The notes under the pieces are model-generated. The model saw only the letters and a program-made list of their open reading frames with translations, made no database searches and had not been told where the DNA came from. DNA of 6,436 nt from Gemmatimonadota bacterium (GTDB lineage: Bacteria; Latescibacterota; UBA2968; UBA8231): NCBI GenBank assembly GCA_026706505.1, contig JAPOYQ010000921.1:1-6436 (forward strand), read 5' to 3'. Positions within the stretch are counted from its first letter, which is position 1; the number at the start of each line of letters is the position of its first letter. Of the stretch, positions 257-6,434 are shown one piece after another. A program made the position numbers and the translations under genes.

Positions 257-283
257 TCCGGCTTAGAAGGAAGCTGAGCCGGA
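257..283 (+). other. Hairpin just after the aldo/keto reductase stop
   Basis: Bases 257-266 (TCCGGCTTAG) pair with 274-283 (CTGAGCCGGA) around a 7-nt loop, giving 10 pairs of which one is U-G in the plus-strand transcript. It starts six bases after the stop codon. No U-tract follows, so it is not a classical intrinsic terminator. It could be a 3'-end stabilising or pausing structure. The U-G pair would be an A-C mismatch on the other strand, which favours action in the plus-strand RNA. Confidence 0.45.
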
Positions 284-365
284 GGAGGCCAATAGGGCGC
301 TCAACGAAATGATGCGCTAAGGCTTGGAAATTGCGGCACTGCGATACCACTGGGAAGGAGAGGAG

Positions 366-392
366 GCGGGGCTCGGGCGTCCCGCTTTTTTT
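366..392 (+). terminator. Intrinsic terminator after the aldo/keto reductase
   Basis: A GC-rich stem, 366-372 (GCGGGGC) with 379-385 (GCGTCCCGC region, including one G-U pair), closes a 6-nt loop and is followed directly by seven T (386-392). This is the textbook Rho-independent layout for plus-strand transcription. It lies 116 nt after the aldo/keto reductase stop and upstream of the sigma-factor gene, so it should insulate the two. No gene is visible in the 236-nt gap (251-486) apart from this terminator and the hairpin at 257-283. Confidence 0.75.
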
Positions 393-534
393 GCCCAAAT
401 GCGAACCTTTTGCCTGTCGGTTTCTTCTTGTAGGGTGAAGGAGTTGTAGCCGTGGATAGAATATCAGCGCCACGGAAAGAAAAGAGTTGGGCGCTTTCCC
501 GTCGCCTAAAGACGAGTCCCCAGTGCCGGATTGT

Positions 535-1872
535 ATGGACAGCGAAGCCGACCTGGTGCGCCGGTGCCAGATGGGTGATGGCACGGCCTTTGCCCCGCTC
601 CTGCGTCCTTACGAATACGCCCTGGCCGCGCTGATCCGCTACCGGATCGGCCACCCGCAGCACGCCGAAGATGTATTGCAGGAGGCGCTGGTGCAGGCTT
701 GGACGCGGATCGGCGCGCTTAAAGAACCAGACAAGATCGGCCCCTGGCTGATGCAGATCGGCCGCAATCAATGCCGCGATTTCTTCAAGGCGGCACAGCG
801 GCGCGAAAAGCCCACCGAGGGCGCGGCGCTAGCGCGGGCTGTCGATAGCGACTTACTGCGGCAGCATCGACGGCAGTTGCAGCGGGACGAAGCGGCCCAG
901 GCGTTGGAGCAGGTACCGCAGCCCCAACAGCAGGTCGCCCGCTTGCACTACCTGGAGGGCTTGAGCATCGCCGAAATAGCCGCCCGCGGCCAATGGCCCC
1001 AAGGCACGGTCAAACGACATTTGTTCCAGGCTCGCCTGCACATGCGCCAGAGCATGGAAATCACCGCCCGCGGGAGGAGACCCGAAATGCGGACCCAATT
1101 GCCCAAAGACCAAAAGGACGGACAGTCCTTCCCCCAGCAGCGGCCCGAAATAGCCGTCCGCGAACTGGACGGGGTGCCCTTTGCGGTCGAATGCCCCGAG
1201 TTGCGCTGGTGGCTGGTGGTGCCGCGCCTGGGCGAGGAAGCCATCCAAGGTACGTATAAAGCGCCCGACTGGCGCTTGGACTGCGTTGCCCGCATGCGGG
1301 TGGCGCGCCCGGCCGAGGTGCATGGCTTGGAAGGCGTGGAAGTCGAGGTCGAAGAATGGGACGGAGACATTAAAGGCTGGCGCGATGCTGGCTGGTCTAT
1401 GTGCGCTCGGGAGAATGGGGAGGAGATCCAGTATCTGGCGGTCATTGAACAGCAGGAGGAGGGGATCTCGATCAATACTTATCTAAGTCAGAGTTTCACC
1501 GGGGCCTTCGGGTGTATGAAGCGCCGCATTGAGGACACTAGACGATATGTGCGCCAGTCGGACGGCTCGTGGAAACAGGCCCACAGCGCCGACAATCTCG
1601 ACGCCAGCGGTGCCGGGATGTACGAGGTGTGCATCGGCGATAAAGTCTTCACCTGTCTGCGGGTGCTGCAACTCGAAGGCTTGGTCACCGAAGAGGACGC
1701 GCCCGTCGACGAGGCGTACATTACCGCCGAGGGCCGCACTGTGCTAATCCGAGACTATGCCCACGACTGCTTTGACAATATCGACTTGGACCGCTCCCAT
1801 GCCTTGGTAATCGACGGGCAGACGCTGTACCACTGGACGGACCGGGTGACGGGGGCGGGATTGGGACTCTGA
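535..1872 (+). CDS. ECF-type RNA polymerase sigma factor with a long C-terminal domain of unknown function
   Basis: The protein is 445 residues from ATG 535. Residues 6-89 form sigma region 2, with DLVRRCQMGDGTAF, the HPQHAEDVLQEALVQAW helix at 40-56, and GPWLMQIGRNQCRDFF at 69-84. Residues 124-172 form region 4, with the -35-binding helix-turn-helix LSIAEIAARGQWPQGTVKRH starting at 143. Ordinary ECF sigmas end near here (170-200 residues). This one continues through a basic, polar linker (about 175-205) into about 240 residues rich in Trp and acidic residues, with seven cysteines and no membrane segment. That tail contains EAYI (393-396), GRTVL (400-404) and IDGQTLYHW (426-434). I recall the same pattern in sigma fusions of Paenibacillus and uncultured phyla, but know of no proven role. 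It could sense a ligand or hold the sigma inactive in place of a separate anti-sigma. TTG 487 is an alternative start: it has GGAAAG at 474-479 and adds 16 residues, but the ATG fits the usual family N-terminus better. No anti-sigma gene adjoins. Confidence 0.88.
   Translation: MDSEADLVRRCQMGDGTAFAPLLRPYEYALAALIRYRIGHPQHAEDVLQEALVQAWTRIGALKEPDKIGPWLMQIGRNQCRDFFKAAQRREKPTEGAALARAVDSDLLRQHRRQLQRDEAAQALEQVPQPQQQVARLHYLEGLSIAEIAARGQWPQGTVKRHLFQARLHMRQSMEITARGRRPEMRTQLPKDQKDGQSFPQQRPEIAVRELDGVPFAVECPELRWWLVVPRLGEEAIQGTYKAPDWRLDCVARMRVARPAEVHGLEGVEVEVEEWDGDIKGWRDAGWSMCARENGEEIQYLAVIEQQEEGISINTYLSQSFTGAFGCMKRRIEDTRRYVRQSDGSWKQAHSADNLDASGAGMYEVCIGDKVFTCLRVLQLEGLVTEEDAPVDEAYITAEGRTVLIRDYAHDCFDNIDLDRSHALVIDGQTLYHWTDRVTGAGLGL
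1072..1089 (+). promoter_or_regulatory. Internal ribosome-binding site and in-frame ATG at the sigma/C-domain junction
   Basis: GGGAGGAG (1072-1079) stands 7 nt before ATG 1087-1089, which is in the sigma reading frame (Met 185 when counted from ATG 535). It is the best Shine-Dalgarno match in this half of the window, and it sits at the boundary between the sigma part and the C-terminal domain. Translation from here would give the C-terminal domain alone, 261 residues. The same bases encode a Gly-Arg-Arg stretch, so the match could be a by-product of coding. Confidence 0.4.
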
Positions 1873-1893
1873 GGGGTACTTCTATAGCAGGAG

Positions 1894-1933
1894 CAGGAGA
1901 AAGCGCTCTGATGATTAGGAGTGCTTTCTCCTG
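1894..1933 (+). terminator. Long hairpin after the sigma-factor gene, possible terminator
   Basis: Bases 1894-1908 (CAGGAGAAAGCGCTC) pair with 1919-1933 (GAGTGCTTTCTCCTG) across a 10-nt loop. That gives 15 continuous pairs, with one G-U wobble in the plus-strand RNA (G1905 with U1922). The wobble would be a C-A mismatch on the opposite strand, which favours function in the sigma transcript. It begins 21 nt after the stop codon. Downstream comes AGCAAATAATAC rather than a U-run, so it would be a U-poor terminator or a 3'-end stabiliser. The stem is far too long and regular to be chance. Confidence 0.55.
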
Positions 1934-2013
1934 AGCAAATAATACTTGTCTGACCAGTTCATAGACGGGGAATATACGAAGGGTTGGCCTGACCTTGGTC
2001 TGGGCTGAGCGCC

Positions 2014-2044
2014 TTGACAGAGAATCCCAAAAAGCCCCTTTATT
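2014..2044 (+). promoter_or_regulatory. Possible sigma-70-like promoter of the SDR/kinase operon
   Basis: A perfect TTGACA lies at 2014-2019 in the 209-nt gap before the dehydrogenase gene. The nearest A/T-rich -10 candidate is TTTATT at 2039-2044, 19 nt further on, which is long and a weak match. The -35 box alone is convincing. Transcription from it would leave a leader of roughly 30 nt before ATG 2082. Apart from the hairpin at 1894-1933, I see nothing else in the gap. Confidence 0.3.
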
Positions 2045-2891: not shown

Positions 2892-3500
2892 ATGCACAAA
2901 GTACCCGCTGACTTGCGAGTGATCCTGATCGGCGGCTCATCCCACGTCGGAAAATCGACCCTGGCCGATTCGCTGGCAGCAAAGCTGGGGTGGACCCAAA
3001 TCTCCACGGACAAACTTGCCCGCCATCCCGGTCGTCCATGGCCGGAACCAGTGCCCGACCACGTGGCCGAGCACTATCTCTCGCTGTCGGTGCTCGAATT
3101 GATTGAGGACGTGCTCCATCACTACAAGGTCAATGTGTGGCCGCAAGTTGAGACGATCGTCACGGAGGTCGCGACCGATACCTCCAAGGAGCGGATAATA
3201 GTGGAGGGATCTGCTCTGTGGCCAGAGTTTGTGGCGACGCTAGAGGTTGCCAACCTCGCTGCTATTTGGCTCACAGCGAGTGACGCCGTGTTTGAGCAGA
3301 GGATTCACGCTGCGAGCGAGTATCGAACGAAGTCACAGCGCGAAAGAGTGATGGTGGATAAGTTTCTGAAACGCAGCCTGCTCTACAACGCGCAGATGAT
3401 GGATGCGATCAGGCAGCATGAGCTGGTGAGTGTGGACGTAAATGCGGCCAGCGTGGATGAGCTGATAGAGAGGTGTTTGTCGTTGCTGGGATTGGAGTAG
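2892..3500 (+). CDS. P-loop kinase-like NTPase (AAA_33 / adenylate-kinase-like fold)
   Basis: The protein has 202 residues. Near the N-terminus it carries a Walker A motif, GSSHVGKS (15-22) followed by T23. Next comes ISTDKLAR (37-44), like the 'TD.hR' acceptor-site motif of small-molecule and zeta-toxin-like P-loop kinases. IIVEGSALWP (102-111) has the hydrophobic-strand-plus-Glu form of a Walker B. An Arg-rich stretch at 137-152 (RIHAASEYRTKSQRER) probably forms the lid that closes on ATP. The sizes and order fit a small cytosolic kinase, such as the 2-phosphoglycerate kinase or chloramphenicol-phosphotransferase relatives, but I cannot assign a substrate. ATG 2892 is 9 nt after the dehydrogenase stop and lacks a clear Shine-Dalgarno site, so translational coupling to the SDR is likely. 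The sequence around 3190-3500 looks less GC-rich than the SDR gene, which may mean a different history. It could instead be an uncharacterised nucleotide-binding protein. Confidence 0.75.
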   Translation: MHKVPADLRVILIGGSSHVGKSTLADSLAAKLGWTQISTDKLARHPGRPWPEPVPDHVAEHYLSLSVLELIEDVLHHYKVNVWPQVETIVTEVATDTSKERIIVEGSALWPEFVATLEVANLAAIWLTASDAVFEQRIHAASEYRTKSQRERVMVDKFLKRSLLYNAQMMDAIRQHELVSVDVNAASVDELIERCLSLLGLE

Positions 3501-4059: not shown

Positions 4060-4067
4060 GTTGGAAG

Positions 4068-5768
4068 CTAGGCTGATTGTGCTCGCGGGGCGAGGGCCTC
4101 GTTGTATTGCAATTGATGCAGGCGGGCGTAGATGCCGTCTTGGGCGAGGAGTTCTTCGTGGTGTCCCTCCTCGCGCAATTGGCCTCGGTGCAGCACGAGG
4201 ATTTTGTCGGCGCTGCGGATGGTGGAGAGGCGGTGGGCAATGACGATGGATGTGCGGTCGCGCATCAGTTTTTCCACCGCGTCTTGAATCCAGCCTTCGG
4301 TCTCGGTGTCGATGTGGGCGGTGGCTTCGTCTAGCACTAGAATGTCCGGGTCCGCAGCTAGGGCGCGGGCGAAGGATAAAAGTTGGCGCTGACCTGCAGA
4401 CAAGGCTGCGCCGCGCTCTTGCACGTCGTGGCGGTAAGTGTCGGGCAGGCGGTCGATAAAGCGGTCGGCGTTGACATAGCGGGCTGTTTGGGCGACGGCT
4501 GCGTCCGACAGCTCGGGAGCGCCGAGGCGGATGTTGCTGGCAATGTCGCCGGCAAAGAGAAAGACATCCTGCTGCACTAGACCGAAGCGCCGCCGCAGCG
4601 CTTCCACATTCCACTCGCGGATGTCGATGCCATCGACTAAGATCTGCCCGCGTTGAATTTCGTAAAAGCGACACAGCAAGCTGATGATGGTAGTCTTGCC
4701 CGAGCCGGTGGCCCCGACTAGCGCCAAGCTCTGGCCCGGCTCGGCGCAGAAAGAGACGTCGCGCAGGACCCACTCTTCTCCTTCATAAGCGAACCACACG
4801 TGGCGGAATTCAATGGCACCGGCTATGCGCTCCCGACGCACGGGACCGCCGACTGGCTCTGGCTCGGCGTCGATCAGTTCAAAGATGCGCTCGGAGGAAG
4901 CCATGGCCACCTGCACGGTGGCGTATTCCTCGGCGAGGTTGCGGATGGGCATGAAGAAGCGGGGTACGTATTGCAGCATGGCCACCAAAACGCCCCAGGC
5001 GATTTCCTCGCGTAGCACTTGGCCGACGCCGTACCACAGCACCAGCGCTATCAGGGCAGCACCGCACAATTCCATGAAGGGGAAGTAGGCCGAGTGGTAC
5101 CGGGTGCGCACCAAGCGGGCGTCGAGGTATTCGTCGGTGCCTTCATTAAAGCGTCGGGCGCTGCGCGGTTCGCAGTTGAACAGTTTTACTACTTCTATAC
5201 CCGACAGGGTTTCCTGCAAATCGGCGCTGAAGCGGGCAAAGCGGGTGCGGGCTTGGCGAAAGGCTTGGAAGGTGCGGTTTTGCAGCCACAGGGTGGCGGC
5301 AAAGGCCACGGGCAAAAAGGCGCAGGTGAGCAGACCGAGTTCGACATCGAGATAGAAGAAGATGTAAAACAGAATGGAGGCGATGGTGACGGCTTCGGTT
5401 ACTAAGGAGACGGCACCGTAGGTGAAGAATTCGTTGAGCGCATCGACATCGCTGGTGTTGCGCGCCATCAGCCGACCGATGGGCGTGCGGTCGAAGAATT
5501 TGAGCGGTAGGCCCTGTAGGCAGGTGAAAATGTTCAAGCGCACGTCGCGCATGGTCCACTGGCCGACCATACTGGTGATCCAGCTCTGGGCATAGCCAAT
5601 GGCGAATTGGGCTACCAACAGCGCGGCGAAGAGCAGGACGAGGGTGCCTAGGCCGTCTATACGGCGAGCCGCCGCCCGGCCAGGTGGCGCGGTCGTTCCA
5701 TGCCGCGGACCTGCCGTTGACGAGCACATCGTGCCCGGCGACCTAGACGGCCTAGGCACCCTCGTCAA
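4068..5768 (-). CDS. Main fragment of the split ABC exporter half: membrane and nucleotide-binding domains
   Basis: The frame is open from a TTG at 5768, but its first 36 codons (to about 5661) are rearranged sequence with no family resemblance, so no credible start exists; genuine coding begins near 5659. Counting from 5768, residues 43-290 are the remaining transmembrane helices, including FFDRTPIGRLMARNTSDVDA (91-110), the conserved segment of the intracellular loop. The nucleotide-binding domain has the A-loop tyrosine Y328, Walker A GATGSGKT (352-359), the Q-loop Q400, the signature LSAGQ (456-460), Walker B ILVLDE with catalytic E481, the D-loop at 485-487, and H512 of the H-loop. The signature deviates from LSGGQ while the catalytic Glu is present. 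This is the 'BmrD/YheH' side of an asymmetric pair, and the residues LSAGQRQLLSFARAL and LDEATAHIDTETE resemble that subfamily closely. Confidence 0.8.
   Translation of the reverse strand: MTRVPRPSRSPGTMCSSTAGPRHGTTAPPGRAAARRIDGLGTLVLLFAALLVAQFAIGYAQSWITSMVGQWTMRDVRLNIFTCLQGLPLKFFDRTPIGRLMARNTSDVDALNEFFTYGAVSLVTEAVTIASILFYIFFYLDVELGLLTCAFLPVAFAATLWLQNRTFQAFRQARTRFARFSADLQETLSGIEVVKLFNCEPRSARRFNEGTDEYLDARLVRTRYHSAYFPFMELCGAALIALVLWYGVGQVLREEIAWGVLVAMLQYVPRFFMPIRNLAEEYATVQVAMASSERIFELIDAEPEPVGGPVRRERIAGAIEFRHVWFAYEGEEWVLRDVSFCAEPGQSLALVGATGSGKTTIISLLCRFYEIQRGQILVDGIDIREWNVEALRRRFGLVQQDVFLFAGDIASNIRLGAPELSDAAVAQTARYVNADRFIDRLPDTYRHDVQERGAALSAGQRQLLSFARALAADPDILVLDEATAHIDTETEGWIQDAVEKLMRDRTSIVIAHRLSTIRSADKILVLHRGQLREEGHHEELLAQDGIYARLHQLQYNEALAPRAQSA
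5637..5659. repeat. Left arm of a 23-bp perfect inverted repeat
   Basis: This arm is the exact reverse complement of 5744-5766 over 23 bases, and neither side extends further. Read on the minus strand it is the true exporter coding sequence DGLGTLV. The two arms enclose 84 nt (5660-5743). Confidence 0.95.
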
Positions 5769-5772
5769 CGGC
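5713..5772. repeat. 12-bp inverted repeat bounding the inverted exporter block
   Basis: GCCGTTGACGAG (5713-5724) is the reverse complement of CTCGTCAACGGC (5761-5772). The copy at 5761-5772 is in the gene's proper orientation and encodes A-V-D-E on the minus strand. The copy at 5713-5724 belongs to the inverted block. The right arm overlaps the 23-bp repeat by six bases (CTCGTC). Those six bases were also a natural inverted repeat in the undamaged gene, a likely seed for strand switching. Confidence 0.9.
5744..5766. repeat. Right arm of the 23-bp perfect inverted repeat (misoriented copy)
   Basis: This is the second copy of the 23-bp sequence. Here the exporter residues DGLGTLV read on the plus strand, opposite to the gene. 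It is contiguous with the rest of the inverted 54-nt block at 5713-5766. Confidence 0.95.
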
Positions 5773-5946
5773 TATTTTGGTCAGCACGGGACCGGCCTGA
5801 CGGGCCAGCGAGGCCGCGAGGATGAGTACTAACGTCGAGACGGCCCAAGGCCAGTAGGGCCGCAAGAAACCCAACAGCCTAGCCATTAGGCGGAGGTCGA
5901 TGGATTTTTTGTCGATTTCCTGCTCGTCGCGGATGGTCGGCGGCAT
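5752..5946 (-). CDS. N-terminal fragment of the split ABC exporter half
   Basis: This open frame has 64 codons, from ATG 5946 to TAG 5752-5754. The start shares one base with the stop of the upstream ABC gene (TAATG), so it is translationally coupled to it; a GAGGAA about 14 nt upstream is too distant to be an ideal ribosome-binding site. Residues 1-20 are a charged cytosolic lead. Residues 24-48 are the first transmembrane helix. GPVLTKIAVDE (52-62) is the conserved end of that helix, where exporters normally continue with a short extracellular loop. The last two residues, Gly-Ala, and the stop come from inverted sequence. On its own this piece should have no function. Confidence 0.6.
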   Translation of the reverse strand: MPPTIRDEQEIDKKSIDLRLMARLLGFLRPYWPWAVSTLVLILAASLARQAGPVLTKIAVDEGA

Positions 5947-6434
5947 TAGAGGTCGCTCAATTCCTCGGTGAGGTGTTGGCGGCGGTACATGTCGGCGTAC
6001 AGGCCATCGCGTGCGAGCAATTCGTCGTGGGTGCCCTCTTCGACAATGCGCCCTTCGTCGAGCACGATGATGTGGTCCGCGGCCATGACGGTGGAGATGC
6101 GATGGGCGATGAGAATGGTGGTGCGCTCGGCCATGATGTCGCGCAGGCGCGTGAGGATTTGCTCTTCGGTGCGGGTATCGACGCTGGCTAAAGCGTCGTC
6201 GAGAATGAGGATTTTCGGTTGCCGCACAACCGAACGGGCTAAGGCCGTGCGCTGCTTCTGCCCGCCCGACAGGGTGACGCCGCGCTCGCCGACGATGGTT
6301 TCCAGCCCTTGGGGAAAGGTCTTGAGATCCGCGGCTAGTTGGGCTACCTCGATGGCGCGTTCGACCTCGTCTGGAGCGACTGAGTCGAGGGCGATGTTGT
6401 CGCGGATGCTCTCGGAGAACAGGAAGGTGTCCTG
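5946..6434 (-). CDS. Heterodimeric ABC exporter half (BmrC/YheI-like), C-terminal NBD fragment
   Basis: This is the last 162 codons of an ABC protein whose start lies beyond the right edge; the frame opens at 6434 with the Q-loop ([14 protein letters not shown]). It continues with the intact signature LSGGQKQR, then Walker B ILILDD, in which the catalytic Glu is replaced by Asp (LDDALASVD). An H-loop (IAHRIST) and the usual tail [17 protein letters not shown] follow. Asp in place of Glu plus a perfect signature is the 'BmrC/YheI/TM287' signature of one half of a heterodimeric exporter: its own ATP site is degenerate, while its signature completes the partner's active site. The partner is the next gene, whose features are the mirror image. 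The TAA stop overlaps the partner's ATG (TAATG). The call is secure for the family; the exported substrate is unknown. Confidence 0.9.

What the first reader, a model, noticed from the sequence alone, without database searches (positions are those of the whole stretch)
5637..5772. An ABC exporter gene is broken by an inverted copy of its own sequence
Reading the minus strand, the gene runs correctly to AVDE (5761) and resumes correctly at DGLGTLV (5659). The linking peptide, AVDEHIVPGDLDGLGTLV, is encoded without error on the opposite strand at 5713-5766. So a 54-nt block is inverted, and its last 23 bases also exist in the right orientation. HIVPGD is present only in the wrong orientation. 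In the reconstructed intact gene, GACGAG and CTCGTC form a natural 6-bp inverted repeat around 35 bases, exactly where the switch occurred, so a template switch by fold-back is a simple explanation. The lesion separates 62 good N-terminal codons from 522 good remaining ones, with no other decay visible, so it is recent or artificial.
Basis: partly seen in the sequence, partly recalled or inferred. Interest (0 to 1): 0.72.

Follow-up and report, generated by a model that had tools for sequence, protein, structure and literature searches.

The report
Fold-back chimera breaks ABC exporter gene
In this short DNA assembly a transporter gene is interrupted by a flipped copy of its own sequence plus 53 letters of unrelated DNA, the kind of scar left when a copying enzyme jumps between templates, and it may well have been made in the test tube or by the assembly rather than in a cell.

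Summary
Positions 5713-5766 are an exact inverted copy of the exporter's own sequence: 54 of 54 bases match relative L001 in opposite orientation, and 23 of them form a perfect inverted repeat with 5637-5659. In 8 of 8 close relatives (L001-L008) the gene is uninterrupted, 592-598 codons. One junction fits a fold-back at the natural GACGAG/CTCGTC repeat; 6 or more matching bases occur at 0.2% of random inverted joins.

They are 77% G+C against 61% for the window, and no source was found. So 101 nt replace 19 nt, with three junctions; one fold-back does not suffice. The truncated 64-aa product was found in one contig of 6436 bp, evidently this window. The rest of the gene shows no decay (dN/dS 0.05-0.11).

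Best reading: a template-switch chimera, slightly more likely made in vitro or by assembly (0.52) than in a cell (0.42). Both kinds are known. Raw reads would decide.

The parts
5946..6434 (-). 3' end (162 codons, runs off the window) of the upstream ABC exporter gene
   Evidence: open ORF; PF00005 E=1.8e-10
5761..5946 (-). intact 5' part of the broken exporter gene, 62 codons, ending AVDE; with two further codons (GA) and a stop the ORF is 5752-5946
   Evidence: aligned without indels to 8 of 8 relatives over 5762-5946
5761..5766 (.). CTCGTC, shared by the inverted block and the native sequence: 6-nt microhomology at the fold-back junction
   Evidence: sequence; 6 or more at 0.2% of 200,000 random inverted joins
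5713..5766 (+). inverted copy of the gene's own sequence (54 nt), encoding AVDEHIVPGDLDGLGTLV on the wrong strand
   Evidence: 54/54 identical to L001 5025-5078 in opposite orientation
5725..5743 (+). 19 nt of the gene that exist only in the wrong orientation
5637..5659 (-). right-orientation copy of 23 nt of the block, where the gene resumes
   Evidence: perfect inverted repeat with 5744-5766
5660..5712 (.). 53-nt filler of unknown source, 41 of 53 G+C
   Evidence: no source
4068..5657 (-). intact remainder of the exporter gene, 529 codons from D70 plus stop
   Evidence: PF00664 E=1.8e-41 and PF00005 E=7e-29 in the 566-aa ORF that contains it

Best explanation
The stretch is a template-switch chimera inside an otherwise normal ABC exporter gene, and it more likely arose outside the cell (amplification, library end-repair or joining of contig ends) than inside it. 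Read in gene direction, synthesis reached GACGAG (5766-5761), switched at the complementary 6-nt repeat to the opposite strand, copied 48 nt backwards (to 5713), jumped to unrelated G+C-rich DNA for 53 nt (5712-5660) and rejoined the gene at 5659, 19 nt beyond its departure point. Shown: the geometry, the 6-nt microhomology, the 19 nt lost from the right orientation, intact relatives. Inferred: the order of steps, a foreign source of the filler, and the in-vitro or assembly origin. If the contig is a true sequence, the gene is a very young pseudogene: 62 codons plus two, a stop, then 529 codons lacking the start of the membrane domain.
For: Inverted repeat and block; 6-nt microhomology, 0.2% at random inverted joins; intact gene in 8 of 8 relatives; the truncated 64-aa protein was found in one contig only, of the window's length (3 proteins from 7 candidates, the other two, P0122 and P0123, differ); no other decay although the gene is strongly constrained; filler of unusual composition, reached by 1018 of 130,676 53-nt windows (0.8%) in 21 loci of the relatives' genomes, and absent from their genomes while native controls of the same length rang in 8 of 8. 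The pattern fits published artefacts: 406 of 475 MDA chimeras were inverted, over 70% of junctions with 2-21 nt complementarity (PMC1855051, passages); library chimeras form at short reverse-complementary regions, simulated at 6 bp on average (PMC8458033, passages), or at natural inverted repeats (PMC10908179, passages).
Against: The sequence returns to its own gene within 19 nt, which a simple one-jump chimera would not do; a chimeric molecule must also have won in assembly. The inverted repeat (6 bp) is below the 8 bp total used in the ArtifactsFinder criteria. The other genes of the window that I looked at are open and no second inverted repeat of 16 nt or more within 400 nt was found in it, so there is no sign of a generally chimeric contig. 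The filler's composition test is weak: windows overlap, 64 of 6279 windows of the rest of the contig also reach it, and the strain's own genome is not available.
Confidence: 0.52

Rival explanations
1. A real, recent mutation in the cell: replicative template switching (fold-back at the 6-bp repeat, then a jump to other DNA and return to the original template, as in microhomology-mediated break-induced replication) that inactivated the exporter in this strain or in part of the population.
For: Return to the same gene with only 19 nt lost is what a two-way template switch predicts; local inverted templating with 6-nt microhomology; template switching between short inverted repeats is known to break genes in phage T4, E. 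coli and yeast (PMC8604942, passages); templated insertions in MMBIR are described (PMC8421209, listing and start of abstract only). Absence of further decay fits a very recent event.
Against: Intact in 8 of 8 relatives; seen in one short contig; strong constraint on the gene (dN/dS 0.049-0.108); no donor for the filler in the clade's held genomes.
Confidence: 0.42
2. An invertible or mobile element: the 23-nt arms are terminal repeats of a small element that inserted or flips.
For: Perfect 23-nt arms around 84 nt; the fragment folds far better than shuffles as single-stranded DNA (z -6.8).
Against: Both arms and the block are ordinary coding sequence of this gene in relatives, so the repeat is a product of the lesion and explains the fold; 19 nt are missing from the right orientation, so flipping could not restore the gene; no repeat of the filler elsewhere in the window beyond 10 nt.
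Confidence: 0.02
3. A functional variant: the 566-aa ORF from TTG 5768 is a working exporter with a new N-terminus.
For: The frame is open through block and filler and joins the exporter in frame.
Against: Open frames are common in such G+C-rich DNA; none of the 120 listed homologues (of 7999 scored) covers more than 96% of the query; the ABC_membrane match begins at residue 41, profile position 41 of 274, so the start of the domain is lost.
Confidence: 0.02

Closest known systems
MDA (phi29 amplification) inverted chimeras, PMC1855051 (passages read)
   Same: inverted joining of nearby segments, intervening loss of sequence, few-nt complementarity at the switch
   Different: here the sequence returns to the original locus and carries 53 nt of unrelated filler; whether the sample was amplified is unknown
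Library end-repair chimeras at short reverse-complementary regions or inverted repeats, PMC8458033 and PMC10908179 (passages read)
   Same: switch at a natural short inverted repeat, spacer read in reverse complement
   Different: those are low-frequency reads, described in human samples; here it is in a contig, with filler and return
Template-switch mutations between short inverted repeats (quasipalindrome / spacer inversion), PMC8604942 (passages read), PMC7202029 (listing only)
   Same: fold-back or strand switch at a short inverted repeat inside a coding gene
   Different: the yeast spacer inversions had arms longer than 9 bp and no filler; here 6 bp arms, 53-nt filler, 19-nt loss
Microhomology-mediated break-induced replication with templated insertions, PMC8421209 (listing and start of abstract only)
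   Same: several template switches in one event, insertion between them
   Different: donor of the filler not identified; described there for cancer genomes
ABC exporter, subfamily B type
   Same: PF00664 and PF00005 in the broken gene, PF00005 in the neighbour; some close homologues carry the name 'ATP-binding cassette, subfamily B, multidrug efflux pump'
   Different: interrupted after codon 62 in this contig

Membership tests
Template-switch (fold-back) product, in vivo or in vitro | segment that is a reverse-complement copy of adjacent sequence | tested here: met
Template-switch (fold-back) product, in vivo or in vitro | microhomology / short inverted repeat at the switch point | tested here: met
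   6 nt at 5761-5766; 0.2% of random inverted joins reach 6. Not assessable at the two filler junctions
Template-switch (fold-back) product, in vivo or in vitro | all inserted sequence templated nearby | tested here: not met
   the 53-nt filler has no match longer than 10 nt in the window nor longer than 15 nt exact in the 53 loci then held; so a simple two-jump fold-back is excluded, a multi-jump event is not
Amplification / library / assembly artefact | not supported by independent reads or a second assembly | tested here: inconclusive
   truncated protein seen in one contig only; reads not available
Amplification / library / assembly artefact | sample amplified or treated so that such chimeras form | not testable with these tools
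   origin of the window not told
MMBIR-type mutation in the cell | donor of the filler in the same genome | tested here: inconclusive
   own genome not held; absent from 8 relatives' genomes and no convincing match in 64 genomes of the phylum
ABC exporter (ABC_membrane + ABC_tran) | transmembrane domain and ATP-binding cassette | tested here: met
   PF00664 1.8e-41, PF00005 7e-29, but the first 40 positions of PF00664 lie before the lesion or are lost

The most novel reading that the evidence does not exclude
The lesion is real and was made in one replication event in an uncultured bacterium: a fork folded back at a 6-bp repeat, copied 53 nt of DNA from another, more G+C-rich organism of the same community, and returned. 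That would be a natural record of illegitimate capture of a very short piece of foreign DNA combined with local inverted templating (compare 'short-patch double illegitimate recombination' of competent bacteria, recalled; two searches listed no paper on it in the library).
Probability: 0.15. Interest if true: 0.45.

Novelty: already known. Interest (0 to 1): 0.15.

Why it matters
If artificial, it is a clear example of a fold-back chimera with filler surviving into a contig and making a conserved gene look like a pseudogene; such contigs should not be used as evidence of gene loss. If real, it is a very young complex template-switch mutation in an uncultured lineage and a test case for capture of short non-local DNA.

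Tried and rejected
Origin of the filler 5660-5712. Local BLAST against the 53 loci then held: exact matches of at most 15 nt. As a 62-mer (with 9 flanking bases): 8 relatives' genomes, all 8 with rows at E<=10, best E 0.068, 14-17 nt exact or about 20-33 nt at 78-91%; 64 genomes of the phylum, 3 of 64 at E<=0.01, best 0.0019, partial matches of 24-39 bases at 82-92%, taken as chance; 8 genomes behind other loci, 0 of 8 at E<=1e-4; 396 genomes of the phylum of L017's genome, 0 of 396 at E<=1e-6, but at most 2 candidates per genome were scored in the rows shown. Plasmids: 72 records at E<=10, best E 0.3, 10 of them covering 80% or more at about 80% identity; phages: 55 records, best E 0.3; I take these as chance in G+C-rich DNA. 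Two exact pieces of 24 and 23 nt in viral contigs: 0. Two reading frames as 20-aa peptides: best E 3 in 8 genomes, 0.136 (9 of 64 genomes at E<=1) and 0.098 (18 of 64 at E<=1), against 7.5e-7 to 2.0e-5 for the native control. Four frames were not searched. A native 62-mer control rang in 8 of 8.

Another copy of the lesion: one search gave 3 proteins among 7 candidates. P0121 is the window's own. P0122 and P0123 end in ...RSRADQNSR and look like simple frameshifts of the same gene in other contigs, so they are not this lesion. Only proteins of similar length can be found that way, and clusters hide members above 90% identity, so a second contig with the lesion is not excluded.

Background of inverted repeats: in 70 loci plus the window (582,802 bases) four, the window included, have perfect arms of 20 nt or more with 30 nt or more between and within 400 nt (window, L036, L042, L050); none in L001-L008 (runs of N in L054 disregarded). 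L036, L042 and L050 were not examined.

Invertible or mobile element and new-protein readings were set aside as told under rivals. NCBIfam, PADLOC, PHROGs, Rfam, structure prediction and fold search were not used.

Full report
What the window is. It is 6436 bases, 61% G+C, and evidently a whole short contig: the protein database lists the window's 64-aa truncated ORF in one contig, of length 6436. No genome is held for it. Its closest relatives are MAG contigs titled Latescibacterota/Latescibacteria or Gemmatimonadota/Gemmatimonadetes (L001-L008, 93-98% identity in the best protein segment; dS 0.20-0.37). Sponge-associated members of this phylum are described in print (listing only); that these MAGs are sponge symbionts is my inference from bin names.

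The gene. On the minus strand lies the end of one ABC exporter gene (5946-6434) and directly after it the broken one. The 566-aa ORF that holds its 529 good codons matches PF00664 and PF00005. In 8 of 8 relatives the gene is uninterrupted with 592-598 codons.

The lesion. In gene direction the gene is normal through GCCGTTGACGAG (complement of 5761-5772). In relatives it goes on with 19 nt (HIVPGD and one base) and then TAGACGGCC... Here it goes on with the reverse complement of the gene itself, back to 5713, then with 53 nt (5712-5660) that are not from the gene, and resumes at 5659. The block is 54/54 identical to L001 in opposite orientation and makes a perfect 23-nt repeat. So 19 nt are replaced by 101 nt, with a stop after two new codons and a frameshift for the rest. 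The downstream frame happens to stay open to a TTG at 5768; none of the 120 homologues listed covers more than 96% of that ORF.

The switch point. CTCGTC at 5761-5766 belongs both to the inverted block and to the native sequence: a 6-nt microhomology from a natural GACGAG/CTCGTC repeat around 36 nt. Of 200,000 random inverted joins of the window 0.2% had 6 or more matching bases. The GACGAG arm is present in 4 of the 8 relatives (L001, L002, L005, L008; sequences printed). At the two filler junctions microhomology cannot be assessed because the source is unknown.

The filler. 41 of 53 bases are G or C. In 21 loci from the eight relatives' genomes 1018 of 130,676 overlapping 53-nt windows (0.8%) reach this, and 64 of 6279 in the rest of the window; nine of the 21 loci (L054-L061, L066) had been fetched because they resembled the filler, which if anything raises the figure. 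Two of its six frames have G or C at 16 of 17 third positions, as coding DNA of a G+C-rich organism would; a hint only. Its longest match elsewhere in the window is 10 nt, which 197 of 300 shuffles also reach or exceed. Searches in relatives, the phylum, a second phylum, plasmids, phages and viral contigs found no source, while native controls of the same length rang in 8 of 8 genomes. So it is not in the held genomes of this clade's close members; foreign origin is inferred, not shown.

Age. Against the eight relatives the gene has no indel except at its variable 3' end (differences at 4067-4085). dN/dS of the window's 580 good codons against each relative is 0.049-0.108, and window-only codon changes are 6 synonymous and 2 amino-acid changing, as in the intact relatives (7-18 and 0-5). 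The lesion is thus very young or not biological.

Real or artificial. For artificial: seen in one contig, a gene under strong constraint, filler of unusual composition, and a signature like that of amplification chimeras (406 of 475 MDA junctions inverted, PMC1855051, passages) and of library end-repair chimeras (PMC8458033, PMC10908179, passages). For real: the sequence returns to its own gene within 19 nt, which simple chimeras do not do and replicative template switching does (PMC8604942, passages); and nothing else in the window looks chimeric. An artificial origin needs either a complex molecule or the joining of two contigs that each end in a chimeric tail. I put 0.52 on artificial, 0.42 on a real mutation and the rest on other readings. 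The common core, a template-switch product with a fold-back at the 6-nt repeat, I hold at about 0.85.

Novelty. Both kinds of product are known. The three-junction form with unrelated filler is less usual, but one example without reads cannot carry a claim.

Noticed in passing
window 260-2027: About 1.77 kb with an ECF sigma-factor gene (487/541-1872; PF04542, PF08281) lies between the aldo-keto reductase end and the SDR gene; in 5 of the 5 relatives where both flanks aligned (L001-L004, L006) only 13-77 nt separate the flanks. Full-length homologues at 37-38% identity lie elsewhere in G003, G004 and G006.
   Followed up: partly
window 2892-3500: Kinase-like P-loop gene (weak AAA_33/AAA_18) aligned in 3 of 8 relatives (L003, L007, L008); the others have other content or nearly nothing between the flanking genes (16 nt in L004): a variable spot.
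   Followed up: no
P0122 and P0123 (contigs of 15428 and 10375 bp): 60-aa N-terminal fragments of the same exporter gene that end in a frameshift a few codons before this lesion's site; possibly single-base sequencing errors.
   Followed up: partly
L038 4333-4432: Perfect 50-nt palindrome exactly at the end of the MAG contig, which looks like a fold-back assembly artefact.
   Followed up: no
L036 6109-6299, L042 6686-6867: Perfect inverted repeats of 27 and 26 nt with 137 and 130 nt between the arms, similar in layout to the window's lesion; whether chimeric or natural was not tested.
   Followed up: no
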